Made by a program: the position numbers and the translations under genes
Part shown: positions 6,401 to 24,062 of the stretch, one piece after another
Layout of the letters: each line of letters starts with the position of its first letter
Position numbering within the stretch: the stretch's first letter is position 1
Assembly (NCBI GenBank): GCA_004794655.1
Contig: SMMW01000575.1
Location: 11,917,001 to 11,981,000, forward strand
Reading direction: 5' to 3'
From: Marisa cornuarietis
Taxonomy: Eukaryota > Mollusca > Gastropoda > Architaenioglossa > Ampullariidae
DNA: 64,000 nucleotides
The notes under the pieces: generated by a model
The model's input: the letters and a program-made list of their open reading frames with translations, nothing else
Databases searched by the model: none
Told to the model about the DNA's origin: nothing

Positions 6401-9400
6401 TCTGTGAAAAGTCAATGTCAGTGGCTCAGCTAGTATAGTTATGTAAAATCTACTACTAAGCTAAAAAATACAAATTTCACAGAGATTTGAGGTTTAGATC
6501 AGTCAGGATAGACAATTACTTCTACACTAATGGTCAAAGTAATGTCAGCCTCATCCACAGAACTTAACTACATGATATTGGAATCATTATATATTCATTA
6601 TTCTTTTGTTATCTGTTACTGTTTACCTGTACCATGTTTCTGTATTTATGTGACATGAGACTCAATATGAAAATACAATTTTTTTAAATTTGTTGTACAA
6701 TTTATATAGCCTTGGCTTTCCTCCCCCACCCCCTGCCTCTGCCCCTTCCCTCATTAACTTTTGGTATTTTTCTAAGTTTCCATGATTTAGTATAAAGATG
6801 AGAAACCATAATACAGCAGCATCAGATAGCTCATCAAATTAACTTTTGGTATTTTTCTAAGTTTCCATGATCGATTTAGTGTAAAGATGACAAACCATAA
6901 TACAGCAGCATCAGATAGCTCATCAAATAAACTACGCCTTGGAGTCCAACCATCAGGAAGAAATACTTAACAAATAATTCCTTTTTTCAGCTGAAAATCA
7001 AGAATTTGCAGATGAAAAAGCAGAGGAGGCACTGTTTCTTCGTATGTCTTCTGTGGAAGATGAAATTGTATGTCACAAAAATTTTAATATTTAAAAATTA
7101 GTGTTTAAGTGAACTCATATAGCACCATATCCCATGGCACTTTACAAAACACACACACAGATAGTCCAGCTCTATAATTGCTCAAACTCTGCATTTATAC
7201 AAGAGAGCTAAATTAATTCAGCAATAGTCATAATGTCAAATACAAGAGTGTAGCATCTACTCATAGAACATTGCATCGTCTTTGTGACTTTCTCATTGGC
7301 AAACTGCACAAAGAAATTGTTATGGTGAGATAAAGGAGGCAGGCAAGGCAATGGTGGGAAGTTGATGGAAAGTGGTGTGTAGGTGAAAATGGTCTGGTGT
7401 AGATAAAGAAAGAACAATCCAGATAAGTGGTAAATGCACTGCAAAAAATACAGATCAAGAGGAGACATAGATTCAAGAACAAGATTAAAAAGAGAGACAG
7501 AAGTCCCCTCCAGTTAGGTGAAGGGAATCCCTCTCCAAGTACCTAATAATAATAATACACATTTTTGTAATTGCAAATTAGTTCTTTTGAAGTCAGAAAG
7601 TGTGGTTTGATATGCTTATATGTCCTTATTAAGGCTGAGGGTTCGGGAAAAAATTGTTTGATGTTTATATTAAAAACTTTTATTTTGGTAAAATAAGCTT
7701 ACATCTGCACAGTCAGTTAAATATCTTTTAGCTTAGTAGATGTGAAAAATAGGAGACTATTTCACTACGCGCGTGTGAGTATGTGTTTGTGCACATGTGC
7801 ATGTGTGAATGCATACATGCAATGTTTGTATCTTATTTTTTTTCTACCTCAGCTCAAGAGGCTGCCAAAGGTATGGTATACATTTTTGGTTTTTATGAGT
7901 GCATTTTATAAAATTCCAAGAGCACTAACTAGAAAGAACGTTAAGAAACAGATAAAGGAGCAACAAGATTCTACCCAGAGACCCTACATCAGGAGTTACA
8001 CAAACTAAGTGCTATACAACAAATCACCCACAGGAACACCAAAGTTAACCACCAAGTTTCATGTAATATTTTTCCTAAGTACAAGGCAACTACTGTAGCA
8101 AATGTAAAAAAGTGGAATGTAATGTAAAGTGAATCACCAGATAAAGAAATGCACAGTATTTGATGTTTATATAACAGGGGAGATGGGGGCTGCTTGCCCA
8201 GTCTCACCACAATAATAAACATAGTCAACACTGATGGGTAGAATGGGCTTTACTCGTAAGCCGGTTGATGTTGCCAGCAAAGGCGAAACGTTCACAAGCA
8301 GTCTAAGCAATCTCTAAACTCCTCGACAACTCTCTCTCCGAATCTTTTCTCCCTTTCTGCTTTGCCCTCTTATGGCTACCCCTTGAATATTCTAGAAAGT
8401 CCCTCATTGCCATGGTGGCCCCCATCTGCCTGGGAAAATCAGAGGTCATTGGGTCGCTGACCAGGAAAAAACCAGCTCCACTCACCCATCTCTTTTTCTC
8501 TGGATAAACTCTAGAAAGTGTTGGACATCGAAGCACATTGGCAGCTCCTGTATGTGTGAAACCAACAAAAGGGTATCAGACTCCTAGAGTTTAAAAAGAG
8601 CCAGAGACTCACCTTAGCCAATGCCTTATATCCCCACAAGAAATCAAGGATGGCAACTTGGCACTCACCAGACGGATTGGTCCATAATCAGATTGACTAT
8701 ATCCTACTGCCGAGACGCTTCAAATCCAGCATCAACAGGGCCAAGACAAGGACGTACCCAGGCGCTGACATAGGCAGGAACCATGACCTTGTTCTAACGA
8801 ACCTAAAGCTGAGGCTAAAAGCGAAGCAACTCTCAAACACTCCCCGAATTCGCTTTGATTTGGAGAAACTGCAAGACCCAAAGGTTGCAGAAGTCTTCAA
8901 GGCCACGGTAGGCGGAAAATTTGGCGCGCTGAACCTGGTGGACTGTGATGTAGACACCCTCGCTGGAAACATCTAAGAGGTGCTACTGTCGACAGCCCAG
9001 GAGGTTCTAGGGCGACAAAGGAATAAGAAACAGCCATGGGTCACAAATGACATCCTAGACCTCTGTGACCAAAGGAGGACCTTGAAGAGAGAAAAGAAAA
9101 GCAAACCAGAAGCAGCCACCAAATAAAAAGAAGTGAACTGTGCCATTAACAAAGGGATGAAGGCAGCTAGGGATAGCTGGATCGAGAATCAGTGCTGGGA
9201 CATAGAGGATGGAATGGCACGAGGTGACAGCAAAAAGGCCTATCAGCTTCTTAAGACCCTCACTAAGACAGACCAGCAGAAGATCTCAGTCATCGAAGAC
9301 AGCAATGGTCACCTTTTCACAGAAGGCAATGTTGTACTCAACCGATGGACAGAATACTGCAAGGACCTGTACAACTACCAGCTGAAGATCGACGCCAACA

Positions 9401-12400
9401 TTCTCCAAAACAACCAGGCTAGAGACAGCAAACCTGCAGACCTACCAGTCCTACAGGAAGAAGTCGAAAGAGCTGTACATAGTTTGAAGGGAGGAAAGTC
9501 ACCAGCTGAGCTGCTCAAGCAGGGTGGAGAAGAAACTACAAAGGCCCTAGCTGTCCTGTCCCAAAGAGTCTGGGAGCGCAAGGAATGGCCCAGAGAATGG
9601 ACGCAGTCACTAATCATACCTCTCCCAAAGAAAGGAAACATCAAACAGTGTCAGAACTACAGAACCATAAGCCTTATCAGTCACCCAAGCAAAGTCATGC
9701 TGAAGGTCATACAGAACCGCATCAGAACCACAGCAGAAGAGCTGCTAGCAGAACAGGCTGGCTTCATACCATGTAGAAGCACAGTTGAGCAGATCTTCAA
9801 CTGTCGTCTTCTTATAGAAAAGCATCTTCAGCATCAGCGGGACCTTTACCACAACTTCATTGACTTTAAAAAGGCATTTGACAGAGTCTGGCATGAGGGA
9901 CTATGGCATGTGAGGCGGAAATTCAACATTGAAGAAGGGCTCATCCAAGTTGTTGAAGCGCTGTATAACAGCTGAATGAGTACAGTACTGCTGAACAACC
10001 AAATAGGAGCTTACTTTCGCACCACCTGTGCTGTTCAATATATTCTTGGAGAACATCATGCTCGAAGCTCTTCATGACCATTATACTTGCATTTCAATCG
10101 GTGGAAGACCAATCTGCAACCTACGCTTTGCAGATGACATAGATCTGTTAGCAGGTACAAACAAGGAACTGCAAGAGCTCACCAACAGACTGACAGACAG
10201 CTCAAACGCATATGGAATGGAGACCAGCACTGAAAAGAGCAAAGTTATGATCACTGGTAACGGCAAGGCAGAGATCTATATGAACAGGGTACAGCTCGAA
10301 GAGGTAAGCAGCTTCAAGTACTTGGGAGCCACCCTCTCCAAGGACGGTAGCTCCACGCTAGATATCCGCATCAGGATCGCAACAGCAACAGCAGCAATGG
10401 CTAGGCTATATAGGATATGGCATAGCCACAAGATAAGGTTCATTACCAAGTACAGGCTGTACAAATCCCCGATAGTACCAATCCTGCTCTACAGATGCGA
10501 CACGTGGACTCTGCTCGCCGAAACGAAATGGAGAATCCAGGCATTCGAGAACAAGTGCCTGAGGAGGCTGCTCCAGATCTCATACAAAGAACACAAATCT
10601 ACGACTTTGTCAGGAACAAGATTGCCACACTCGTTAGACACCAGGAACCTTTACTATCAACAGTCAAGCGACGTAAGCTGGTCTTCTTTGGCCATGTAAC
10701 CCGGCACGACACCCTTTCGAAGACTATCTTTCAAGGCACCTTGGAGGGTGGCCGACGCCATGGTGGCCAGAGAAAGAACTGGCTTACGAAGGTCAAAAAC
10801 TGGACTGGTCGTCCTGTACAGGACCTGCTGACTATCGCCCAAAATAGGCAAGGTTGGCTGGCCCTGTCAGCTGCCGCATCTGTCCATGTGCTCCCCCCAA
10901 CGCCAGGTGGCAGGTAAGGGACGACTGACTGACGTGTGTCAGTCCCTGCCTAACCCCACACTATCATATTTATATTAAAAATATACTTTTGAGAAAAAAA
11001 TGCTATCTTTGTTGCATTAAACCTTTTTTCAGTATTTTAATATCTGTTAGATTTTGTACCATTTGATAACATGCAACAGCAAAATGAGTAACATTTACTT
11101 CGCTAAATAAACAAGACTTAAGACCTCTTATTAGTACACCACTTATAAAGTTAGCTTTAAAACATTACCCACACATTGTTTTTATCGCTGTCCTTGTCCT
11201 GCTTTATAATCTTACCCTATATATACAGGGTTTCCACAAGGTCTCTTTACAATTCAAGATTTTGTTAACAAATGAATAGGCAAAAGTGTGAAAATAATTC
11301 AAAATGAGAAGTAGATATTGAAGGTTTTTTTGCCTCATTTAATACACCATTAGTTGCATGAAGCACCATGATGGTGCATCCTCAGACGTTCGTTCCAGCA
11401 TGTTAACTGCAAACTCTTTTTGTCAAGCTTTATCATTTTGCTCGAGTGCCTGTAAGAGTTGCACATTATAAGCGTACAGTCTCAAGTTCTTGTGTGGACC
11501 TTGTGCATGGTTGAACATGGTAGCTGTAACTGGCAGTAGCATGAATGGATTTTGAGGAAGCAAAAGCACAGGACTGTCTTACACGATTGATGTTTTCCTC
11601 CAGTGTTCTTTGTCGTCCACTCCTTTTTGTATCCAATATTGTCCATGTCTCTATAAATTTCTTGTGCCATTCATGAATTGACTGACATGACGGTGGGTGT
11701 TTTCCATACTTAGTCCTGTAGTTTCGCTGAGTCTGCATATCTAATTTTGTTTCTATAAACCACGATACACATTATTGTGCCTTTTCTTGAGGAGTAGCCA
11801 ACCTAAATTACACAAATGCAATGTGATTACAAACTTTGAGTTCATAGGACAAATTTGATTAACACATCAATTGCCTTTTTAGTAATTTTAGTAATCTAAG
11901 TAGTACAGAATTTTATCTGAATGGTATATTTGAAAACATTTTGAATGATCTACTGCAGATTGAAAACAGAGTTGTTCACTTTGGAAAGTATATCAAAACA
12001 ATGTTGCCTGTGTATGGTGGCGAAATCAGACTACCATTCTGGAAAAAGATTTATTACTTGTGGTCAGCGCCTATCTCCAAATTCTGGCTCTATTTGGTAT
12101 GGCTTTTTAAAAGCTTGTTGGTGTGCTGTTATCAGTTTATTGCAATTTTTTGGTTATATGTAGCCTAACATAGACCTGTAAATGCTTACTTTTGCATCTT
12201 CATTAATACAAGAGCTCAAGTGTCATGAGCACTGCCACTTTCAGACAGTTCAACAGATAACACAAATAATCGATTAGGTGCTGGAGGAGACTGGACAGGT
12301 AAAAATTATTCACTAGGTTAGTTGAAGGTCCTAGGTAAAGATACCTACTTTGGTGAGTGAGTGTACTTAATAGACTCCACTAAAGCCAACACTGCACTAA

Positions 12401-15400
12401 AAAGCCTATCTTTGACGGTATCATGGTGACAGCCTTCACATGCTGCCATCTTTGTATTGATTGTCCACAAACAATCTATTCAACTTTTGATTGGGCTAGC
12501 AGTCTTCCCTCTACCCTCTCCGCCTACCCACACGTTCATGGGAGGCACAAATGTGTACAAGTTGGTTCCTCACATTGGCAAACAATAAAGAGTAGCAGAC
12601 TGTCATTGCTCTTTTTTGTTTTAAGCATTCCTGAGAGCATGTCTATCAGACCTCTTTGCTTTAAGTGATAATGAAGAGGGCCATCCTGTTATATTAGCTT
12701 TGGTGCCTTTGAGTTTTTCTGTCAGTGTGGCTCCATGAAACTACAGCTCTGTCCATGCCTGCTTTGGTAGTGGGTAGAGCTGCAGGACATGCTCACAGGT
12801 CTGTGAGCCCATCTTGCATGGACAGCTGTCAGTGTTTGACAGCCCCATGCATGTATGTGTGTGCAATTGTCAATGTCCAGTGTGCAGACAGAAGTCTGCT
12901 GGTAGCATTTCAGCATATGATGGCAGGTCAATGTGTTTATTTATCCACTGGCTTTTAAAGTGGTGCTTGAGGAGGGCTTTGACTTTGTTGTAGATTGTCA
13001 ATACACAGTGGAAGAGCACACAACTCATGAGCCCTTATATTAATGAAAGTGCAGAAAGTTGACATTACATTGAGGCACCCGGTAGTGGTTAAAACACTTG
13101 CTTGTCACCACTGCAGTGGGAGGCCATAGGTTCAGATCTCATCTTGAGACAATCTCTGCATGTGACACCTGTTCACAGGGCTGGCCATCAGGGTTTTTTT
13201 TCTGGGTGCGAAATCACTCCTATATATATGGAAGCATTTTCCTGCCATATTAGCCAACCAACCAGACCATGACATTACAGGTCTATATTTAGCTGCATTT
13301 TTTTCTCCTTGAGATTGCAATTAATGTCATGTGTATAAAAGTGTATTGTGAACATTTATGTGTGCCTAGGTACACATAAGAGATAAATAGATCAAAAGAG
13401 AGATATTACCTGTTTACCAGTTTTCCTTGGTTTTAACGTCTTTTTTTAATTACTATTGATTTCAGGTGTTCTATGTGGCTTACCTTGTTGTTTACACCCT
13501 TGCTTTATGGTCACCTGATTGTGGTGACATCTTAATGAACACTATTGTCTTCTTTTGGACCTTTTCCATGTGGTTGGAACTTATTTGTACAGTCTATATC
13601 AAGTACAAGGTATGAGCTCTATTTGAATAGAACAGTTCTATTGTTTAATTGCCAGTGCTCCAAACTTACTGTGTCTCTTTATTGGTTCTAGAATTTGTGG
13701 ACACAAAAACAGGCTCAGCTTCATTGCTCTTCATATATGCAACAATAAACAACAGTTATTGGTAGATACTAAGTCGATCTATACTTTGACAAATACTCAG
13801 AATTTAAAAGAAATTGCTGTCTTATACATGATGAAGAATTTATTATTCTGTAAAGTTTCTAAATAAACCTCAAGAAAATTAAAGACATATAAAGTAGAAA
13901 TAATTTTCTTGATTTCTTTTCAGATAACTCTTGATGGAATTTTTAAAAAAGTTGGAAGCTTAATGAGATAGTGAATATATATATATATATATAGAATCTA
14001 GTCAAGCATTAGAATTGTTTCTTAACAGTTTGTGACTTTAATGCTGGTTTTACTAAAATTTGGTAGCTTCATGCAAATGGCTAGAAAGCTTTGGTCTTAT
14101 TAGATTAAGACTTTCTGACAGTTAAAACTTGAAGAACACTTGACCACATGATCTATGTTTTTGCAGAGAAACCCAGAGCTGAAGATAAAATTTCAGCTCT
14201 TAGAGATTGGCATTGTTCTATTGTTTCTTATGGTCTTCTTGGCAATGCGAATCCTTCCCCACTTTATTAACATCATCAACTTTATGACAGCAAAATTCTT
14301 GATAAGCATTGGGCTCCTTTTTTTCTTTTATCGTGGAATGTTCCTCTTCATTCCTGTGAGCTCAGACCTGGGTCCAATGCTTATTAATATCATTTCAATG
14401 GTAAGTATAGTCTTTGAATGAAAAATAATTTTCTTTGAATGCTGCTGCTATGTTATGCATATCAGTCAGTCAGTTATTTTATTGATCATGTTTATTCAAG
14501 ACATTTTAAAATCAAAAATGAATTCTTGTGTTTCTGCTTTTCATATGTGAAACTGAATGCTTAATCTTATGAGAAGTTCATAAGTATTATGTGTGGGTGT
14601 GGGTGGGCAGGTGTGTTCAAATCAGTATGTTGTGGATAATTATTTGATGTCTTGCCTTTTTCAAGCATGCTTGAAATGTGTAATAGATAATAGGTTTGAG
14701 AGTCATTATGGAGCATTTATTGTAGACTGGTATGATTTTTTTGTTTTGTTTTGTTGCTAGCTTAGTATTAGCTCAACCTGGTAGGGTTCTTACCTCCCTT
14801 TAATTTCCAACTAACAATTCAATAATAATAATACAGCGAAATAATATAGTGCCATATCCTGGTCCTCTGGACAGGCTCACGGCACTTTACAGAAAAAATT
14901 TCCCGTAGTGGTAAGAGCTGGCTTTCTGCTATGTGGTTATTGTTATTGTTTTGATCACTTGGTGTACATGCTAAAATGAAATCTTTCCCTGTTTGTGCTG
15001 CAGTCTTCATTTTTGTACGTACATACATACATATACATGTACATGACAGGTGACTTGAAAATTTATCCGTTAACATTCTCAGGCACAAAATCCTTGTAGT
15101 ATTATTCATAACTTTACATATCCAGTTTGAAGTATTGGACAAATGTTAAAAATACTCTCCGGTACAAGTTCATTGTCATTGAAAAAAGTTCACTTAAATT
15201 GTTTCGGATTTTCAGATTGAGAGAGATTTTAGGACCTGGCTTCAGGTCTACTTAATAATAGCAATAGCAGGAGGCATCACTATTCATGCAGTTATCTACC
15301 CCAGTTCAGACATCAGTGAGGAAACATTTCGCAGAGCTTTTAAGCGTGCTGTTTTTGGGGTTTTTCTGACAGATGTCAGTGACTTGGATGGTGAGTTACA

Positions 15401-18400
15401 AATAACATCTCTTTATGTAACGAAGACAGTGACATAGATGCATGCATTGTATTAACCAAGTAAATAAAGTTTATGTCTTTCTTATTTTAATGTAAGGCTT
15501 GTTTGTGATGAAAGTTTGTAGGTAAAATCATCAGTTTTATGTTATCAGAATAAACTGTCTTGTTTTGTTAAAGACATTGTATTGTTTTGCCAGACATTCA
15601 TCATTCCTAACAAGTATTGTCTTTATTTTCCTTAATGTTTACATTAAATCACTGATAAATTCTTTCTTTGCCTTTTTTTTTTTTTACTTATGAGAGTGTA
15701 CTGCTATAAAGTTTGTGTATGTCAGTGGGTTAACGAAATTGAATAGAAAAATTTTGCTACTTTTTTCTTTGCTTGTTGAATTAAAATTTTTTTTTTCAGG
15801 TGCTGAATGTTCAGTCTTGTATGAGAAAGAAGAAATTAAATATTGCAAATGTAAGTACTAAAGGCAAAATATTTATATGAAAGTGACGACTATGTAGTAT
15901 TACAAAATAACAATTTTCTGACATGTCTAATTACAGTGTGTGCAATATTGAGAACAAAAAACATCATCATTTTTGTATACCCTATAAACTATCTTTTACT
16001 TAGTTAATTTAATCACAGAAAAATATATTATTTTTGCAGATAATCAAATGAATGGTGAGGACTCCTTTTTTTCTTTTTCTTTCTTCCTTAATACGTAAAC
16101 AAGTAATAGAAACATAAATATAAATATGAAAGTTAAAAGATTTGGTGCTTAGAAAAGAGTTAACATTATGCAACTTATGGTATAGATATATATTTTATGA
16201 ATTGTTATTTACTTTATTAAACTGCTTTATAGAAGAAAGAGAAGTGAAAAGAATTTAAAGCCAACAGTGCATAATTACCTCAATGGAATATCCAGATATG
16301 GTAGCACAGTAGATAGTGTATAGTTTTAATGCAATTGCAAGCTTTATAATATCTTTTTAAAAGACACTATAGATATAAGATGCCCAAGAAATGGGACAAC
16401 CAAAGTCCACGAAAAGCTGCATAGATGATGAAAATTTTACTTTTTAGTCTAAAGCAGTCTAAAGAGTTTTTCAAAGAAAAATTAAAGAAAATGGATAGAG
16501 AGAGGGTAGTGTGAAACTCAGCTTCAAAATCAATCAGTGCTTTGTGTATTGTTAAACTGAGATGCATCTGTCTGCCAAAAAAATTTTCATATTTACTTCA
16601 GAAAACATGGAACAAAATGTGATGTGTAATTTTCTGCAGCATCTGAAAGGGCATTGCTGGAGACCTGTCCTCACAAAAGCTGGAACAACTATTTTATTGT
16701 TGGGCAGTACCTTTTCCTTGTCCGACTTATCCTCTGGGCCGTCATCTATGCTATGTTTTCGTAAGATGAACCATATTTAAATAAATAAATGATAGTTAAA
16801 TTATCATGTGAAGGAAAAAGTGTAATTGGAAGAGAACCCCTCATCAAATTCTTCAAGAACGTAATGCAACAAAAACATGCCTAGAGTTGCTTTATTCTGC
16901 TTTGAGATTATTGTTTGTGCTAGTTGGATGTAGGATGGCACTTTTGCTTTAACACTGCATTCCCGCATTTTTCTCCATACAGCTCAAGTAAAATGTATGT
17001 AATTTTTAAACAATACAATTTCAGGGCAACAATTGGCAAGATCAGAAGTGAATCTGTTGAATTGTGGAAGTATCAGCGCCATAAGGTGATTCTGGACTTT
17101 GAAAAGAGACCCATTTTCCCCCCTCCCCTGTCACTCATCACACATGCTGTATACCTTGTGAAGGGGGCTGGTCAAATTGTCTGGAGGTGCTTTCGTCGAT
17201 GTGCTACTCTCTGTGGCCTCTGTCGTTCCAAATCAAGTATTTCACAGGTAAGTCTAGACTGTCATAAGTAAGAATTAGAAAATATTAGTTGATAATAAAC
17301 ATGCGTTTATAGTCTATCTAACATGCTGCTTTAATTGAAACATGAATGAACAGGATTGGGATATCACATGGCACACTTGAGCATGCTTCCTGTAAATAAA
17401 CCTGAGCTTTATTGTGCCAACCATTTGCTCATTGCCACATGAAGCACATAATGTCAGCTTTATCCATGATCAAAAACCACAGTTCTGCCTAATATTAGTA
17501 GGTATAATTTTGATACATTACTAGCGCTTGCACTGTTTTACCTATATGCATATGTATGCATATACGCATTGGAATCTAGGGCTGTTTGGTGGCGCAACAG
17601 TTAGCGCCTGTCACCAATACAGTGAAGGTTGGCTGTCCTGGGTTCAGCTCTCGTCTCGGGCATGCTGTTCTTTCTCTGCATGTGGCATCTGTTTACGCCT
17701 TAGTTGCTGGCTCGGCGTAAACACCAATTCTTCCCGCCTCCCCGCATTAGAATCTATATATGACTATTCCATTCTAAACATTTGCATCCATATACCTATT
17801 CTTATGCCTGTTTGAGCCCTGTAGGAAAAAGGGAAGATGAAATTCAGAAGTGTGAAGGATGACTTCTACTGGAAAACCCTGATCAACCGTTTTGTGGAAA
17901 ACAAAGAGAAGGAAAAGATGGAAGACAAAAGAGCAGAAAGTCAAAGTGATAAGTGAGTTGGTTCCTCTGCACCCATTATCTTAAGGAAACTATTGACAGC
18001 CTTTTATGGCTGCACTTTAAAATATAGCGACAGTACAAAGCACTGTAACATTACAACAGATTTGCTTCACTGTCATCAATATACGGCTTTTGTAAATTCT
18101 GTCTCTCCATTTTGTACCTTAGGGCATCAGTTTAAAACAATCTTTTTAGTCTGTTTTTAAAAAAACCCTTAAGTCAAGACTATTAAACCTGAACCTAGTC
18201 AAGAATATTTGACCTGTGTGTTTGTGTTTGTTTAATGCACATGTGCTCATTTATGAGAAAGCCTGAATCGCATCCGGGAAGAAGTGAAACAGCAACAAAT
18301 ACTTGGCCGTGAGTTGAATGACCGCATCATGCAGCTAGAGAATCAATTCACCAACACTTGTCTGCTCCTGGAAGAGATGAAGCACATGATTGAACATCTA

Positions 18401-21400
18401 AGTGAGTACAAAGGAGTTAATTGCTCTAATCCATGATCCTACTTAGTCATTCTTTCACAAATTTAGCTGTGTTTAGATTGTGTCTTTCTGGCACTAATCT
18501 GTGAATTTATTTTACATACCTGCTTTCATTTTTCTTGAAGACTTTCATAGTAATAGGTACATGCACCACACTGCTCCTTAACATTTCTCTTGTCTTCATT
18601 TTTCTGAGGAATTATCATAAAAAAATGACTTGATATTTATGAGATGTTTGTAGAGAATGGCATCACACTCAGCTGAGCATGCATGCAGCCCTTAGTACGC
18701 AGCTTGTCTAGTGAAGCTATATTGACAAAGAATTGTAGAGAATCACTAACAGCGCAAGTCGCTTGGACCAGAAAAGGGTTTGCAGCCACAGAACTGCAGA
18801 TGCTGGTTTGAGAAGATCTTGTATAAAAAGCAGTGCAGAGCTTTTTTTAATCTGTTGAATCCTTTAAAATATACAAAAAGTAGATCAGTCCTTGAAATAA
18901 TTTAATCATCATAATAATTACAGTATTTATGAAGCACCTGTTCTTGAAAGAGTAATTCGAGGCACACACATACAAGCACTCAAACATGCATGTGGCTGCA
19001 TACTCACATACACAGAAAGAAGAGTGGGCCAGAAATAGAAAAGGAGCATGGACCAAATGTACCATGTCTGGTTGGAGGGATGCAGATGTGAAGGGTATTA
19101 AATGAGGTGGTAGATTGATTTGAACTGAGGTGCCCATTGAGAACTTGTATTGAGAACGTTTAGATATAGGGAGCCCTAGACTGCAGCAAAGAGAGAAGTC
19201 ATGTGATTGGTCTTCTGCTTCCTGAAAATGAGGTGAGCAGCATTGAACACATTAAAAAACATAGATGGAAGATTTAAGAAGACAAAAGAGGAAAAAGTTG
19301 CAGTAGTCACTGTGGGAGAGAATGACAACAGCAAAAAAGTTTAATGGTGGCATCAGTAGAAAGATGTCTCCATGTCTGGCTAATGGTGACCCACAGGTCA
19401 GTTGAATAGAGTTGAACTTATGATTGATGGGAACAGTTTATAGTCTATTGAAAAGGCAGAAGAGAACCAAGAGAAAGTCTTTTTCAGTGATGCCAATAGC
19501 ACAAAATCTGGTGAGAAAGATGGTATGGTTCATGGTGTCAAAAGCAGCAGTGAGTTACCTGAATCAGTTGATAGAATAAGTTCATGCAGAATCTGAAGAA
19601 AAGCAGTGTCATTGCTATAGTAGTGTCGACTGAAAGGGGTTCAGCAGATAAACACAGAGGTGAGTATTTTTGCTTAAAGAGTTTCCTTCATATATGAAAA
19701 TGACTAGACAAAACAGTTGAAGCAGATTATGATCATTGCTTTAGATCACATGTAGGATCAAGAATGATTCCAGCATCCATCCAACACGAACAGCTTAACC
19801 AGGAACTTAGACTTTCACAGCTAAGTCAGTGATATACTACAAAAATTCAAACTGATTATCACTTTAGGTCATCAAGTAATTTTAATTTCATAGCTACTAA
19901 GCACATTTTCTTAATCTGAAGAATTTATGGCTTACAGCATCAAGAACAATACCAATTAAACCAAGATGAGGAATAATATCGGGCATCCGTCCACTGACTG
20001 GACACTAAAATACAATACAAAATGACATTTAGTCAGTATTGAACATAGCACAAATGTGTGCCTTGACTGCAGAACAAACCTATCATAAAAAAGCTATAAA
20101 AGCAGGAAAGCTATCATACCAGTCTTATTCTCACTTTCCTTTATACTGACTGTATTCTTGAGCCAACAGACAATATATGTTTGTCCCCTTCTTCCATTGT
20201 TGATGTATTTTTTCCCCCCCACAGACCCCAAAACTGAAGTTCTTCCTCAAGAACCTCAAAAACTGCTTCATACTGCATCTCGGCAGTCTCCATACTCTGG
20301 CACTTTCATCCGCCGGTATCCTGTCTTTGACAAATATGTTCCATGGGAGGTACTTTATTATGTTGCAACACATCTAAAGCATTTAAGATATGGCAGTTAA
20401 AAAAGAAATAGAACAAGTTTTTTAAGCTACTTATTACTTTAGAATGAATACTTTGATAAGCTTTGTCCTTCTTCATAAACACTTTCTGTGGATCATGGGG
20501 AAATATAGTAAAACAGTCATAAAACCTGTTTCTTAATGCTGATGAGGTATAGTTCTCATTTCTGTTATCTACTGATAGTATTTTTAGCATAACTCATTGC
20601 TCTTTTCACAAGCACAATACATGCATGTGTATTTGTGTATGTGTGTGTGTGTATGGGCCTATGTGTATGATAGGTACCATATGAGTCATATGACCCAGTT
20701 GTGTATACAGCACCAGTCAGCGAATTCCCAGAAGACATACAGATGTTTGTTGATCCAGATGTCTTTGAGTAAGTTTTAAAGAACTTTTCCTTGAAAACTA
20801 CTATCCCATCATTTTTTCCATGATAAAAAAATCTGCCATGAAAATTGACCATCCTATAAGCTACAAAAAAAGCATTTGACACTGTAAAAGCCAACTTCAG
20901 CTGTTCTGTTACTATGCTGTTCTTTTAGTCCTCCTTCCTATTTATCTTTATGCTTCTACCCACCTTTCCCTTTTTTTTTTTTTTTAGCTTTGCAACTTTC
21001 CCTTGAGACATACTGAACATAAGATAGGCTGTTGTGCCACATTTTCTGACAAGCCAACTGATCTTATCAGTTGAACCTGGCAATGCAGTCTCCCAGCAAC
21101 ATGCTACACCATATAGTGGTGTGTCATGCTACACCATAAGAATGCTGTGTCCAAAACCATATAAGACATGAGTGATATATCCAACACCATATAAGACATA
21201 AGAGTGATGTCCCTTCACCACAGCTAAGCTTGTCATTTAAATTTTCTGTCTTAGGATAAAGCGACTTGCAGAACAACGCCTACAATTGTCACCAGAAGAA
21301 CAAAGTGATTTGCCACCACTGCCTGAATTTTCACCAGTCTATAATACCACGTGTATCATCTCCATTAATGGTGTCAATGCTGAGTTAGACAGAACTTCCT

Positions 21401-23755
21401 GGATCACAGTTGATGGGCAGCCACTGTATTATAAAGTTGATGCCTCCAACATTCCGCAGTGAGTGCTGCATCTTGGGTTTTCTGTGGTTGCTTCCTGTGC
21501 TGGTAAATTATTGTGTATTCAAATTCTGGGTTTAGAGTACCTGAATTTGTTTTCATTGATTCCCCAAACCCCAGTTTAGAAAAGGCAACAAGTTTTTTTG
21601 GCATATTAAAGGTAGGATGAAAAATGTTTTTAAACAAAGTGGCCTCCATAAGAAAACCCTGCCATTGGAGAATATTTAATGTCATGAGAGAGAGAGAGAA
21701 TTGAGTGTATCTTTCATGCATGCATACCTGTGTGTTCTGTATGTTTGAATACAAAGAAAATGTTTCTATGTAGTATTGCATGCACCTGTACATGTTAAAA
21801 GCACCTTGAGCCCTGATGGCGCTGTGGAAAGATGCTAAATTAATACTTTATTATTATAATACATCTTTGAAAAGATTTGTATGTGTGTGTGTGTATTTTA
21901 AAATCCAGAAATCCATTAGGAAGGACTGGCTTGTGGGGTCGTGGCAAATTTTGGCGCTGGGGCCCCAACCACAAAATTGTAGCAGTCATCAGCCGCTGGC
22001 GACGAAAATACTCTGCAAATGGTCATCCTTTGGGTCACATGGTGGTTGATGGAAAGCGAGTGCTTGAGTTCATTGCTGTCAAGCATCCAGACTTTGGAGA
22101 GCTAACTCTTCCAGGAGTATGTTGACACTGTTGCTTGGCTGTTTTGTTTTTTTTTCATTTCCTTGCATCTTCTCAGATGTTAAGCTGACAGCACTAAAAG
22201 CAAGAAACGTGGGCACTTTAGGAAGAGAGAGAAAATTATCTCTAGCCTTGTTTTATAGTCTGAAAAGCACAAAACCAAGCACATGCTCTCATATGCCAAA
22301 CTACAGAGATTTGAGTGACATAAAAACTTTTCAACATTTATTTGACAGGGTTATTGATACAGTTCTGCAGCATTTCAGCCTGAATTTTTTTTTTCAAAGA
22401 CAATAGCCGGATGTTAGCACTGGTTACACCAAGTGGTGTTTTAAAGAGATGACAAGGTCATTAGTCAGCTGTCAGTTAGGTACACCTACGTTAGGGTAGT
22501 ACCAGTCATTAAACTCTGAAACATTCATTCTTTCTGCTTACTTTTAGGGTGACGTTTATGGTAGAACAACAGCCTACAGTGTCTTATGTGAGGAATTCCT
22601 TAAGAGTGTGTTTTTGGAGGAAGATGTGGAAGGCAGCCTTAAGTTGGATAAGGAGGACATGATTAGGGTAAGCACCTGGGTAAGAGAAGGACCTTTGTCC
22701 ATTAACACCTGTGACATTTCATGCAGTTCTTAAAGGTGAGCCTAGGTTTCACTATTACCAGCTGATCATCTAAGAATCTGTGGAAGCAGGAAATGATTAG
22801 TTCCTAGAAGTAGACAGGTTTAAATGTGTACATGAAGCCATACACCTCAGCTTGAATGAGTCATGTGTTTTTATTGTTTTGCTATTTTTACTTTTACTTA
22901 GTTGTCTTTATTGAAGCTTGCCACTGTGTAATTGACATACATTTTTTGCTTAAATCATCGTTTTTGATATTGTCAGAGAATGCTTAAGTTTGATGGGAAA
23001 AGACACTGTTCAACCTGCAGTCTAAAGAAGATAATTCTAGTGAGCATACAGGTCTTCTTAATAAAGTAAGCTTGCTTTTTACAGTTCTTTGCTCAGTTTG
23101 CTCGCTCATCCAAACCTTCTGATGGGGAGACAAGCCAGTCAAGTGGATTCACTTCATCCATTCTGTACAGAGGTTACATTGATAGCATACTTAACACTGA
23201 TAATGCTTGGCGAGAAGCTGAAGTATGGAACTTTCATTATAACGAGCAGGACATATTTGATGAAAAAATCAAAGAGGTAAGTAGGCTGGCAGGTAGTTTT
23301 TGAGGTTATGACTGATCTCATAGCACTCAGTGCCAGTTAAAGGTATCCAGGATTAGCAATGGAAAAGAAGTCTTGATTGTCAAACAAGTACAAGCATGTA
23401 TTGCTAGTTGTCTTTCTGTTATTCAGTAAGGTCTTCCATATTGAGGCTGCCTCAAAATGTGCTGAAAAAGACTTTTCTATCCCAGCAGAGTAAATCAGAA
23501 AAATGTTTCAAGACAGCTTCTTCAACCAGGAAAAATTAAAAAAAACAGTTAAGAAATCTGATGCTAAAAGTATTTATTTGTATTTCTTTTTTAATTGTAG
23601 ATTAAATGGGTCATCAGGTTTGTTTGTTGTTTTTTGTTTTTTTTTTAATATAGAGAGCAAAGGTATGGCGAGAAGTAACACCTTACATGCATCTTCATGG
23701 CAACCTGGATTCAATTGTCGTGATAGCAGCCCGTATTCATAATGCATATGTGTGA
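797..23755 (+). CDS. TRPM2: TRPM2-like cation channel with C-terminal NUDT9-like domain (3' two thirds of gene)
   Basis: Predicted member of the melastatin TRP channels, which pass cations across plasma or endolysosomal membranes; TRPM2 relatives are gated by ADP-ribose and Ca2+. I join 23 exons: 797-958, 1407-1588, 3188-3440, 5996-6083, 6991-7067, 7853-7870, 11959-12096, 13466-13609, 14167-14400, 15216-15390, 15800-15850, 16040-16054, 16640-16760, 17025-17247, 17825-17952, 18262-18401, 20225-20349, 20674-20768, 21255-21458, 21909-22116, 22548-22667, 23085-23276, 23654-23755. They total 3,195 nt in one frame with GT-AG borders and end in TGA. Visible order: last TRPM homology region (1-199), pre-S1/S1 (200-306), S2 (307-354), S3-S4 (355-432), S5-pore-S6 (433-552), TRP helix (553-600), coiled coil (670-716), NUDT9-like domain (about 735-1064). 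Human TRPM2 has 1,503 residues, so about 440 N-terminal residues lie left of the window. Pore, Ca2+ site and Nudix box are all unusual. The 18-nt exon 7853-7870 is the least certain. Confidence 0.93.
1838..3070 (-). mobile_element. CR1/L2-like LINE remnant, internally deleted
   Basis: The minus-strand reading contains KTCELDPIPSSLLVDCLDVLLPH, typical of the start of CR1-like reverse transcriptases, and a few residues later LGPILFVLYTSPL from the 'P-GS-LGP-LF-LY' motif. The palm between them, including the catalytic Asp region, is deleted. The C-terminal tail follows (AARLICRPSR, then IQSLHWLPV, then a stretch like the conserved SAWNELP), ending in a (TTA)n 3' tail at 1838-1860. It lies in the TRPM intron 1589-3187 and cannot be active. 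Confidence 0.8.
3441..5995 (+). other. TRPM intron with no recognised gene
   Basis: This 2.5-kb intron holds no convincing exon. The part at about 3490-4230 differs in base composition from its surroundings: a GC-richer patch near 3495-3530 and another at 4060-4200 whose minus strand is open for 70 codons (with YVLLEEDVVQGGRRAYPGM). It is probably a fragment of an unidentified repeat, but I cannot assign it. The rest is AT-rich with a short (GT)n run near 5150-5180. Confidence 0.4.
5996..13609 (+). CDS. TRPM2: TRPM2-like exons encoding S1-S2
   Basis: Exons 5996-6083, 6991-7067, 7853-7870, 11959-12096 and 13466-13609. The first encodes a hydrophobic pre-S1 helix (IFLSMFFILPMFVWISFLP). The exon at 11959 carries YLWSAPISKFWLYL, the TRPM 'F--AP---FW' lead-in to S1. 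The exon at 13466 encodes the end of S1 and S2. The 18-nt exon 7853-7870 (LKRLPK) has a good pyrimidine-rich acceptor and is phase-neutral, so the frame holds with or without it; it may be alternative. Aligned by eye on human TRPM2, the two S2 Ca2+-ligand positions are Leu and Thr rather than Glu and Gln. Confidence 0.85.
6754..6927. repeat. Tandem duplication, two copies of about 85-89 bp
   Basis: Copy 1 (6754-6838) and copy 2 (6839-6927) both run from TTAACTTTTGGTATTTTTCT to the segment CAGATAGCTCATCAAA. They differ by a 4-base insertion in copy 2 (CATGATCGATTTAG against CATGATTTAG) and a couple of substitutions. The low divergence points to a recent local duplication inside the intron 6084-6990, just upstream of the 6991 acceptor. 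Confidence 0.95.
7106..7165. repeat. Short LINE 3'-end-like fragment
   Basis: The segment ATATAGCACCATATCCCATG followed by GGCACTTTACAAAA resembles the segment at 14843-14895 (ATATAGTGCCATATCC, then GGCACTTTACAGAAA). Both look like the terminal stretch of one interspersed family. An (AAT)n run is present at 7541-7555 but is not directly attached. Confidence 0.4.
8220..8545. other. Unassigned GC-richer intronic segment, possible older insertion
   Basis: Base composition rises here against the flanking intron, and the segment includes AAGGCGAAACGTTCACAAGC near 8280, a GCGAAACGTT-type string often met in repeats. It abuts the LINE that follows. No coding signal or terminal repeats could be recognised. 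Confidence 0.3.
8550..10990 (+). mobile_element. 5'-truncated non-LTR retrotransposon (endonuclease end plus reverse transcriptase), broken
   Basis: The copy starts in the endonuclease domain (LTLANALYPHKKSRMATWHS then HNQIDYILLPRRFKSSI) and continues through the reverse transcriptase: YRTISLISHPSKVMLKVIQNR; AEQAGFIPCRSTVEQIF; DFKKAFDRVWHEGLW; then LRFADDIDLLAGTNKELQEL with the catalytic A-D-D; the thumb SSFKYLGATLSKDGS; and a C-terminal end near 10917. Breaks: a stop at 8974-8976, another near 9124, missing codons in the 'P--AELLK' motif, a stop at 9973-9975, loss of about ten codons including the RQGC-type motif near 10020, and a frameshift near 10600. The motifs resemble endonuclease-reverse transcriptase elements common in invertebrates, possibly RTE-like. 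It lies in the TRPM intron 7871-11958 and is dead. Confidence 0.9.
11226..11815 (-). mobile_element. Tc1/mariner-type element remnant with internal deletion
   Basis: The minus strand encodes a helix-turn-helix transposase N-terminus: TPQEKAQ, a stop, CVSWFIETK, then QTQRNYRTKYGKHPPSCQSI and HEWHKKFIETWTI, followed by a linker like KRSGR-RT. This matches the DUF4817-type N-terminus found in many invertebrate transposons. The DDE catalytic region is missing; a C-terminal tail follows at once (LQALEQNDK, then MRQKNLQYLLLILNYFHTF). The left border CAGGGTTTCCACAAGGTCTC (from 11228) looks like the family's terminal inverted repeat. No matching right repeat was found, so that end is lost or truncated. 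Confidence 0.75.
12097..13073 (+). other. TRPM intron segment without recognised features
   Basis: Two overlapping open frames of 69-77 codons on opposite strands (around 12722-12958) have no recognisable similarity and no splice context linking them to the gene. Nothing else is visible before the SINE. Confidence 0.3.
13074..13300 (+). mobile_element. tRNA-derived SINE, copy 1
   Basis: The head resembles a tRNA with Pol III boxes: an A-box-like GGTAGTGGTTAAAACACTTG (13081-13100) and a B-box GGTTCAGATCTC (about 13130). A body follows with CTCTGCATGTGACACCTGTT and a T-rich stretch. The head is nearly the same as that of the copy at 35388 (TTGTCACCACTGCAG in both), and the body start matches the copy at 17578 (CTCTGCATGTG). 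It lies in the TRPM intron 12097-13465. Confidence 0.75.
14167..17247 (+). CDS. TRPM2: TRPM2-like exons encoding S3-S6, pore and TRP helix
   Basis: Exons 14167-14400 (S3-S4 and linker, with the LGP--I motif after S4), 15216-15390 (S5 and pore helix), 15800-15850 and a 15-nt micro-exon 16040-16054 (pore turret), 16640-16760 (turret end and S6), 17025-17247 (TRP helix). S6 ends VIYAMFS, matching the family LLIAMF-, and the TRP region reads ELWKYQRHKVILDFEKRP followed by PPPLSLITH, very close to TRPM2/TRPM8. The pore loop reads AVFGVFLTDVSDLDG, where TRPM2/4/5 have an FGQIP-type filter. The S3 Ca2+-ligand positions align to Gln and Glu instead of Asn and Asp. Two turret cysteine pairs are possible. 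Confidence 0.9.
14820..14896 (-). repeat. LINE/SINE 3'-end fragment with (ATT)n tail
   Basis: (AATAATAAT) followed by ATATAGTGCCATATCC and CACGGCACTTTACAG. On the minus strand this ends in a short trinucleotide tail, as expected for the 3' end of a CR1/L2-like insertion. It is similar to 7106-7165. Confidence 0.5.
17578..17760 (+). mobile_element. tRNA-derived SINE, copy 2
   Basis: The best preserved tRNA-like head in the window: A-box TGGTGGCGCAACAGTTAGCG (17589-17608) and B-box GGGTTCAGCTCTC (about 17640-17652), spaced as in a Pol III promoter. The tRNA-unrelated body contains CTCTGCATGTGGCATCTGTT, shared with the copy at 13074. It sits in the TRPM intron 17248-17824. It is not a functional tRNA: no acceptor stem or anticodon arm closes. 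Confidence 0.75.
17825..18401 (+). CDS. TRPM2: TRPM2-like exons encoding the C-terminal coiled coil
   Basis: Exons 17825-17952 and 18262-18401. The first begins with a basic stretch and contains SVKDDFYWKTLINRFVENKE, equivalent to the WE-YLKENYL segment after the TRP helix. The second is rich in heptads (NRIREEVKQQQILGREL, then IMQLENQF) and fits the short tetramer-forming coiled coil of TRPM channels. The acceptor at 18262 follows GAGAAAG; the neighbouring AG three bases upstream would run into a stop, which fixes this choice. Confidence 0.88.
18890..19700 (-). mobile_element. Decayed CR1/L2-like LINE
   Basis: Read on the minus strand with several frameshifts: HDTAFLQILHELILSTDSGN, then LTAAFDTMNHTIFLTRFC (the AAFDT--H--L motif of CR1/L2 reverse transcriptases), and further fragments towards the 3' end, which finishes near an AT-rich stretch with ATAATAATT (about 18905). 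No continuous frame remains. It occupies much of the TRPM intron 18402-20224 and has the same orientation as the copy at 1838-3070. Confidence 0.65.
20225..23755 (+). CDS. TRPM2: NUDT9-homology domain of the TRPM2-like channel (Nudix box degenerate)
   Basis: Exons 20225-20349, 20674-20768, 21255-21458, 21909-22116, 22548-22667, 23085-23276 and 23654-23755. Anchors to NUDT9 and TRPM2: RRYPVFDKYVPWE, then VPYESYDPVVYTAP; NPLGRTGLWGRGKFWRWGPN; ISRWRR; LTLPGG; GYIDSILNTDNAW near the end. The domain ends 33 residues into the last exon. The Nudix signature (G-x5-E-x7-R-E-x2-E-E) is broken: after LPGG the aligned first Glu is Thr, and REFGEE is replaced by EEFLKS. Hydrolysis of ADP-ribose is therefore unlikely, while binding remains possible. 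There is an extra Ser-rich segment (KPSDGETSQSSGF) between the box and the GY-D motif. Confidence 0.92.
21150..21212. repeat. Imperfect tandem repeat, about 30-bp unit, two copies
   Basis: CCAAAACCATATAAGACATG and CCAACACCATATAAGACATA head two adjacent units, each followed by a GAGTGAT string. A third degraded ACACCATA-containing piece occurs just upstream (21105-21140). It lies in the intron before the 21255 exon. Confidence 0.7.
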
Positions 23756-24062
23756 CATTTTACATTATTAGACTTATTAGATAATTATACCCAGAATTTG
23801 TGTTATCCAGACTGACATGATAGACAGTGAAGGACTTTATGCCGTGTTAGATGTTTTTCTGGGTAACATTTTTATTCCAAAATGTGGATTTGAGTGTTAC
23901 AAATCTAAATTAGTCATAATGTTCTTACAAAATCTTGATATAGTTCTCATTCTTGTACAATTTTTTTATCTTGTCAACTTCATGTGCTATGCCCCAGTGT
24001 GAGAACTATTGTTTTTAACATGGTCCTGTTGGTCTTTTATTGTGGTGAATGTTTGTTCACAG

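What the first reader, a model, noticed from the sequence alone, without database searches (positions are those of the whole stretch)
22548..22667. NUDT9-like domain of a TRPM2-like channel with a Nudix box broken in its own way
After LPGG the box reads with Thr at the first Glu position and EEFLKS where the active NUDT9 enzyme has REFGEE, so the catalytic Glu pair is Lys-Ser. Human TRPM2 also lost activity but by other changes (an RILRQE-type sequence). Invertebrate and pre-vertebrate TRPM2 channels studied so far are reported to keep ADP-ribose hydrolase activity, so this looks like an independent loss in this lineage or paralogue. The rest of the domain (NPLGRTGLWGRG, GYIDSILNTDNAW) is well conserved, which argues for a kept ligand-binding role rather than decay.
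Basis: partly seen in the sequence, partly recalled or inferred. Interest (0 to 1): 0.75.

Follow-up and report, generated by a model that had tools for sequence, protein, structure and literature searches.

The report
Snail TRPS channel, dead Nudix domain
The sequence is the end of a snail ion-channel gene of the TRPS family (the worm ced-11 family), whose built-in ADP-ribose-cutting domain lost its cutting residues long ago in the family rather than recently in this snail, as was already reported for TRPS.

Summary
In detail: exon 22548-22667 encodes GDVYGRTTAYSVLCEEFLKSVFLE after LPG, so the box has Thr at GX5E and EEFLKS for REFGEE. The modelled gene (29 exons, 21 in the window) reads open.

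The interpretation needs correcting. By trees of the channel part alone the gene is TRPS (soromelastatin, ced-11 family), not TRPM2 (support 100). None of 40 TRPS relatives keeps the three box glutamates; Morini et al. 2026 already reported this for TRPS, Pomacea included, so the loss is ancient. The argument for kept ADP-ribose binding is weak: GYIDSILNTDNAW has Ser and Leu at the human contact residues D1431 and R1433. Simple decay is also unlikely: against the tandem copy the box exon has pN/pS 0.13, and TRPS boxes share a motif of their own.

Not found in the papers searched: (1) TRPS have no Arg at R358 and no Tyr/Phe at Y295 of the N-terminal ADP-ribose site; (2) a Lys/Arg in S6 where TRPM2 has Asn; (3) gastropod TRPM2 boxes, this snail's included, are mostly non-canonical, against the published "canonical in all invertebrates".

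The parts
797..958 (+). TRPS exon (MHR3 region); 8 earlier modelled exons lie upstream of the window
   Evidence: homology to tandem copy and P0006
1407..1588 (+). TRPS exon (MHR4 region)
   Evidence: (PF25508)
3188..3440 (+). TRPS exon (MHR4 region)
   Evidence: (PF25508, just below cut-off)
5996..6083 (+). TRPS exon, S1 region; 3' boundary weakly supported
6991..7052 (+). TRPS exon, weakly supported boundaries
   Evidence: E 0.078; low scores 132 and 166
11959..12096 (+). TRPS exon; 5' boundary weakly supported
13466..13609 (+). TRPS exon, transmembrane region
14167..14400 (+). TRPS exon, transmembrane region
15216..15390 (+). TRPS exon with pore helix and filter region FGVFLTDVSDLDG
15800..15850 (+). 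TRPS exon, pore loop with two cysteines (AECSVLYEKEEIKYCK)
   Evidence: (score 46, next best 10)
16640..16760 (+). TRPS exon with S6 (YLFLVRLILWAVIYAMF: Arg and Ala where TRPM2 has Asn)
17025..17247 (+). TRPS exon, TRP helix (ELWKYQRHKVILDFEKRP)
17825..17952 (+). TRPS exon, C-terminal linker
18262..18401 (+). TRPS exon, probable coiled coil
20225..20349 (+). NUDT9-H cap exon (RQSPYSGTFIRRYPVFDKYVPWE)
20674..20768 (+). NUDT9-H cap exon
21255..21458 (+). NUDT9-H cap exon
21909..22116 (+). NUDT9-H core exon (NPLGRTGLWGRG ... LTLPG)
22548..22667 (+). Nudix-box exon, non-canonical; Thr at 22566-22568, EEFLKS at 22590-22607
23085..23276 (+). NUDT9-H core exon; GYIDSILNTDNAW with Ser 23184-23186 (D1431 site) and Leu 23190-23192 (R1433 site)
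23654..23756 (+). last exon with stop codon TGA

Best explanation
The region is about the last two thirds of an intact TRPS (soromelastatin, ced-11 family) channel gene of a snail, probably an apple snail. Its C-terminal NUDT9-H domain keeps the fold (shown by a model of a relative) but very probably cannot hydrolyse ADP-ribose, because the last two glutamates of the box are Lys and Ser (shown in sequence; inactivity inferred from the known inactive REFGKK mutant of NUDT9). The loss happened in an ancestor of TRPS, not in this lineage. The box helix was not simply left to decay but re-made: TRPS boxes share their own motif (G..YS..C..F), and against the tandem copy this exon has a lower pN/pS than the rest of the domain. 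I infer that the domain now works as a structural or regulatory C-terminal part of the channel. I also infer that the channel is not gated by ADP-ribose in the TRPM2 manner, because contact residues of both ADP-ribose sites are changed in this gene.
Against: No assay and no transcript: the gene model is from homology, the junction search demanded GT or GC donors and AG acceptors, and the junctions between 6083 and 11959 are weak. The first box Glu is kept, so residual metal binding is not excluded. R302 of the N-terminal site is kept here and in 33 of 39 TRPS, and R1433 in 22 of 39 TRPS, so ADP-ribose binding is not excluded for the family. The Y295 loop is gapped and its alignment is uncertain. 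Synonymous sites are saturated (pS 0.94 in the box exon), and across all 42 TRPS sequences the box exon is less conserved than NUDT9-H as a whole (0.355 against 0.473). The window copy evolves fast (259 against 78 changes), which fits partial relaxation.
Confidence: 0.85

Rival explanations
1. It is a TRPM2 orthologue whose hydrolase was lost recently in this snail or paralogue and whose NUDT9-H still senses ADP-ribose.
For: Best solved-structure match is nvTRPM2; several source names for relatives say 'TRPM member-like 2'.
Against: Channel-only trees put it in TRPS; the snail's true TRPM2 is at C467; 40 of 40 TRPS share a non-canonical box; two human ADP-ribose contact residues are changed.
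Confidence: 0.03
2. This tandem copy is on its way to a pseudogene or a non-conducting subunit.
For: It took 259 of 337 copy-specific changes with outgroup P0008; its branch is 0.551 against 0.142 (0.133 + 0.009) for the sister copy; Ala at the S6 Asn site, where TRPV1 N676A is listed as non-functional (PMC9242649 passages); D1431 is lost here and in only 2 of 39 relatives, R1433 here and in 17 of 39.
Against: 1503 codons without a stop over 29 modelled exons; pN/pS 0.295 overall and 0.127 in the box exon; pore cysteines kept; no excess of changes in the box exon with any of three outgroups (5:4, 3:5, 4:3). In NUDT9-H as a whole the excess is absent with P0007 (35:28) but present with P0008 (51:21) and P0009 (51:18).
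Confidence: 0.1
3. The domain is still a hydrolase with another metal geometry or another substrate.
For: First box Glu kept in the window gene; Nudix enzymes vary in catalytic base (PMC8145809 passage); acidic residues remain near the catalytic-base loop in many TRPS.
Against: Last two box Glu are Lys-Ser; the loop GDDAxxVxW, which I take to hold the base (D1460 in srTRPM2), is one or two residues shorter in most TRPS rows and here; in the tandem copy the first Glu is Gln.
Confidence: 0.04
4. TRPS NUDT9-H is a ligand sensor, as in vertebrate TRPM2, for ADP-ribose or another nucleotide.
For: Fold and NPxGRTG are kept (40 of 40 Asn at the N1326 site); R1433 is kept in 22 of 39 TRPS; purifying selection.
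Against: R1433, D1431, R358 and Y295 equivalents are all changed in this gene; the D1330/Y1349 site is Val here and rarely Asp in TRPS.
Confidence: 0.15

Closest known systems
TRPS (TRP soromelastatin; C. elegans ced-11; Himmel et al. 2020, not read, cited through Morini et al. 2026)
   Same: Melastatin/SLOG N-terminus, divergent pore, NUDT9-H with lost catalytic residues; S6 fingerprint Asn replaced (TRPS consensus T in PMC9242649 Table 1). Morini et al. include Pomacea and Aplysia.
   Different: This copy is one of a tandem pair, evolves faster, has Arg and Ala instead of Lys and Thr in S6 and has lost both the D1431 and R1433 equivalents.
TRPM2 / TRPM-beta chanzymes (nvTRPM2, srTRPM2)
   Same: Domain order and NUDT9-H fold.
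   Different: nv and sr have AEFGEE- and REFMEE-type boxes and are active. TRPM2-like proteins mostly keep Tyr/Phe at Y295, Arg or Lys at R358, Gly-Glu/Gln in the filter, and Asn at both S6 sites in 50 of 50 with a residue.
Vertebrate TRPM2
   Same: Inactive NUDT9-H.
   Different: Different changes (RILRQE in human) and a separate event; D1431 and R1433 kept in 12 of 12.
NUDT9 enzyme (human; own genome C57)
   Same: Cap plus Nudix core.
   Different: Canonical GX5E and REFGEE and a GDDAxxVKW loop; three TRPM queries gave no channel match at E 0.01 in the 40 kb fetched around C57.

Membership tests
TRPS (soromelastatin) | Groups with ced-11-type proteins outside TRPM in phylogeny | tested here: met
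   channel part only; the other side was nearly all TRPM2-type, TRPM-alpha, beta-like and gamma were not sampled on purpose
TRPS (soromelastatin) | SLOG/melastatin N-terminus plus NUDT9-H C-terminus | tested here: met
   Pfam SLOG and TRPM2-like domain on relatives P0006, P0007, P0012
TRPS (soromelastatin) | No conserved ADP-ribose hydrolysis residues | tested here: met
   GTEEFKS; 0 of 40 TRPS with the three box Glu
TRPS (soromelastatin) | S6 fingerprint Asn replaced (TRPS consensus Thr) | tested here: met
   Asn replaced: Ala in the window gene, Thr in 38 of 40 TRPS
TRPS (soromelastatin) | No N-terminal Cys-rich segment | not tested
   first exon lies outside the window and is poorly conserved
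TRPM2 (TRPM-beta) chanzyme | Groups with TRPM2 in phylogeny | tested here: not met
TRPM2 (TRPM-beta) chanzyme | Y295/F268, R302/R275 and R358 in the MHR1/2 ADP-ribose site | tested here: not met
   T, R, L, so one of three kept; the Y295 column is gapped and less certain
TRPM2 (TRPM-beta) chanzyme | Gating by ADP-ribose | not testable with these tools
   needs patch clamp
Active Nudix hydrolase | GX5EX7REUXEEXGU | tested here: not met
NUDT9-homology fold | Cap plus Nudix core fold | tested here: met

The most novel reading that the evidence does not exclude
TRPS channels as a family are blind to ADP-ribose and have a rebuilt pore: no Arg at the phosphate-binding R358 of the N-terminal site in 39 with a residue there (1 has Lys), no hydrolase box in 40 of 40, and a Lys (39) or Arg (1) in mid-S6 where TRPM2 has Asn, with Thr at the filter E/Q site in 39 of 40. 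The family would then be a melastatin-type channel that dropped ADP-ribose both as agonist and as substrate and may conduct something other than the usual cations, in keeping with the reported role of C. elegans CED-11 in shrinking dying cells. In the same snail TRPM2 itself has also lost its box, so no TRPM-linked hydrolase was found in this genome.
Probability: 0.3. Interest if true: 0.65.

Novelty: new member of a known kind. Interest (0 to 1): 0.35.

Why it matters
The finding itself adds one more TRPS gene to a published rule. What would matter beyond it: the statement that TRPM2 Nudix boxes are canonical in all invertebrates (PMC6461439; supported for non-vertebrate TRPM in PMC13143021) does not hold for gastropods, where 8 of 9 TRPM2-type proteins and the snail's own gene fail the three-glutamate test (one of the eight, Gigantopelta, only by Glu to Asp). 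The nine came from a search seeded with the snail's own broken domain, so they are not an unbiased sample of molluscs. If ADP-ribose hydrolysis is the brake on invertebrate TRPM2, as those authors suggest, these snails must use another brake. TRPS, with contact residues of both ADP-ribose sites altered, is also a natural test of what a melastatin channel does without ADP-ribose.

Tried and rejected
Rejected: TRPM2 orthology (trees); recent lineage-specific loss (family-wide; in print); alternative exon restoring REFGEE; outright pseudogene, kept only as a rival for slow degeneration of this copy. An early worry that the pore-loop exon was missing was wrong: it is at 15800-15850.

Led nowhere: Pfam on the spliced NUDT9-H found no family in the held release, and PF25969, named in the homolog tables, is not in that library. 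The CED-11 literature search gave one paper that only cites Driscoll et al. 2017. A first dN/dS run held one block in the wrong register (14% identity); one search replaces it. dS is near or beyond saturation, so only pN/pS is quoted. A second structure job was not used. Morini's supplementary figure S6 could not be read (no look-ups in supplements allowed).

Not done: no RNA evidence, no deliberate TRPM-alpha, beta-like or gamma outgroup, no C. elegans CED-11 sequence in the alignment. The trees and residue counts used homology-bounded drafts of the window gene, its copy and C467, not the spliced model.


Full report
What is there. The exon 22548-22667 on the + strand reads GDVYGRTTAYSVLCEEFLKSVFLEEDVEGSLKLDKEDMIR and follows an exon ending in ELTLPG. 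Seven 3' exons from 20225 to 23756 join into an open 347-residue NUDT9-H region; each starts after AG, and the first six end before GT. It matches nvTRPM2 (6co7, 1.1e-31) and human NUDT9 (1q33, 4.2e-30). The box has Thr for the GX5E glutamate and EEFLKS for REFGEE. Relative to NUDT9 the first box Glu is kept, R is Glu, and the last two Glu are Lys and Ser.

The whole gene. The window is C449:11917001-11981000 of a held 534 Mb genome. The gene starts upstream: 8 of 29 modelled exons lie before the window and 21 in it, from 797 to 23756. The junction search required GT or GC donors and AG acceptors and chose GT-AG for all 28; the 1503-codon reading is open to the final stop. The junctions around 6083-11959 are weakly supported; a first, poorly conserved exon (near -16857 to -16369) is not in the model, and the start codon is not placed. 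The pore-loop exon with the two cysteines is at 15800-15850. A tandem copy (PAR1) lies about 50 kb upstream at C449:11859897-11890955 with the box LPGGNVYGKTTAYSVMCEQFLKG. The organism is probably an apple snail: its TRPM2 gene on C467 matches a Pomacea canaliculata protein at 88% in NUDT9-H. That is an inference.

What family. Two database searches with this gene returned 5 shorter proteins and 43 longer ones. Of the latter, P0006-P0045 (40 proteins of 1044 to 1932 residues) group as TRPS; the named ones are from gastropods, bivalves, Octopus, a chiton, a priapulid, a rotifer and arachnids, two with the name ced-11. None of the 40 has a precomputed Pfam Ion_trans match, while P0046-P0048 have one. 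I built a tree from 1001 columns of the channel part only, so that NUDT9-H could not drive it. The 42 TRPS-side sequences (40 plus the window gene and its copy) separate from 51 others, nearly all TRPM2-type, with support 1.0 and a branch of 1.26. IQ-TREE on 35 of them gives UFBoot 100 for the same split, 97 for window gene + copy + P0006, and 100 for PAR1 + P0006. Morini et al. 2026 (PMC13143021; abstract, passages and section 29 read) describe exactly this: TRPS is the sister of TRPM, is C. elegans ced-11, keeps NUDT9-H, and its hydrolysis residues are not conserved in any species they examined, Pomacea and Aplysia included. They conclude an early loss. Himmel et al. 2020 is cited through them; I did not read it.

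The box across families. With E1, E2 and E3 the three glutamates of REUXEE, all three are Glu in 0 of 40 TRPS, 0 of 12 vertebrate TRPM2, 1 of 9 gastropod TRPM2 and 20 of 31 other TRPM2-like proteins. The snail's free NUDT9 on C57 reads GEREFEE, which shows the method can see a canonical box in this genome. Published mutants support inactivity: NUDT9 RILGEE and REFGKK are inactive, and human TRPM2 has RILRQE (PMC6461439 passages). The window's EEFLKS resembles REFGKK.

Not plain decay. Between the window gene and its copy pN/pS is 0.295 (0.267-0.327) over 1307 codons and 0.127 (0.058-0.215) over the 40 codons of the box exon; synonymous sites are saturated. Among TRPS the box has its own motif: G 36, Y 38, S 30, C 33 and F 38 of 40. 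Against that, across all 42 TRPS sequences the box exon is less conserved than NUDT9-H as a whole (mean pairwise identity 0.355 against 0.473), though not among 8 gastropod ones (0.690 against 0.665). The window copy is the fast one: 259 against 78 copy-specific changes with outgroup P0008, 245 against 85 with P0007, 216 against 85 with P0009. In the box exon alone there is no excess (5:4, 3:5, 4:3). So the gene is kept but evolves faster than its twin.

Ligand sites. In human TRPM2 the NUDT9-H contacts include D1431, R1433 and Y1485, and the MHR1/2 contacts are Y295, R302 and R358 (PMC6759353 passages); srTRPM2 needs F268 and R275 (PMC11479946 section 7). The window gene has Ser and Leu at D1431 and R1433; its copy has Asp and Ala. 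R1433 is kept in 22 of 39 TRPS with a residue there, D1431 in 37 of 39. At R358, TRPS have no Arg in 39 (1 Lys), and at Y295 no Tyr or Phe in 34 (2 His); the window gene has Leu and Thr. R302 is kept in 33 of 39 and in the window gene. The Y295 loop is gapped, so that column is less safe.

Pore. In a gap-free 17-column block of S6 (18 rows shown), TRPS have Lys (39) or Arg (1) at the first Asn of TRPM2 and Thr in 38 of 40 at the second; TRPM2-like proteins have Asn at both in 50 of 50 with a residue. The window gene has Arg and Ala. At the aligned filter Gly no TRPS of 40 has Gly, and the E/Q site is Thr in 39; this stretch holds gaps, so a shift is possible. The Asn to Thr change is already in Table 1 of the fingerprint paper, which gives TRPS 7 of 12 fingerprint residues (PMC9242649 section 6); that paper also lists TRPV1 N676A as non-functional. 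Whether the S6 Lys faces the pore was not tested.

TRPM2 in snails. The C467 gene is a TRPM2 by tree, has Phe, Arg and Lys at Y295, R302 and R358, Gly-Glu in the filter and both S6 Asn, yet its box is GVMESTKIPWQVLEKYLHFE, in an exon flanked by AG and GT. Eight of nine other gastropod TRPM2-type proteins also fail the three-glutamate test; one of the eight (Gigantopelta) differs only by Glu to Asp, and the ninth (Elysia marginata) passes it but lacks other box residues. Eleven of the 31 other TRPM2-like proteins fail too, among them several clams and a chiton, often by one conservative change. This is against the published 'canonical in all invertebrates' and 'conservation ... in non-vertebrate TRPM'. 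I found no paper on it in searches (listings; passages of PMC13143021, PMC8145809 and PMC9242649 read). The genome searches with the window domain and with nvTRPM2 found NUDT9-H only at C449 (two), C467 and C57; a third search with a bivalve TRPM2 did not complete.

How it works. Most likely the domain is a folded, non-catalytic C-terminal part of a TRPS channel, acting structurally or by a contact other than ADP-ribose. Shown: family, box, fold of a relative, constraint. Inferred: inactivity, lack of ADP-ribose gating. For the role of the channel only the title of Driscoll et al. [quoted passage not shown] elegans.

Noticed in passing
C467:1066000-1098000 (-), loci L016-L019: The snail's TRPM2 (TRPM-beta) gene has a broken Nudix box (VMESTKIPWQVLEKYLHFE) although its N-terminal ADP-ribose site and pore residues look kept; most gastropod TRPM2 proteins found share non-canonical boxes.
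   Followed up: partly
C467:1078653-1078495 and C467:1076399-1076097 (-), locus L017: Two different TRP-helix exons (SYTFEMMQQNTDNIWRFMQLQ and SYTFEKVQQNTDIHWKFQRF) in one TRPM2 gene, possibly mutually exclusive exons.
   Followed up: no
C449:11859897-11890955 (+), loci L009-L012: Tandem TRPS copy, slow-evolving twin of the window gene; a protein 88-100% identical to it exon by exon (P0006) comes from an unnamed source.
   Followed up: yes
window 28300-57450 (-): Many coiled-coil-like open frames on the minus strand, resembling CEP135 (recalled; the three ORFs tested gave no Pfam match above cut-off).
   Followed up: partly
window 63476-63772 (-): Open frame resembling NAD(P)H-hydrate dehydratase (Carb_kinase, E 0.067, below cut-off).
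   Followed up: partly
window 9127-10696 (+): Remains of a LINE-type reverse transcriptase (RVT_1, 3.7e-16 and 8.6e-10) in a large intron of the modelled TRPS gene.
   Followed up: partly
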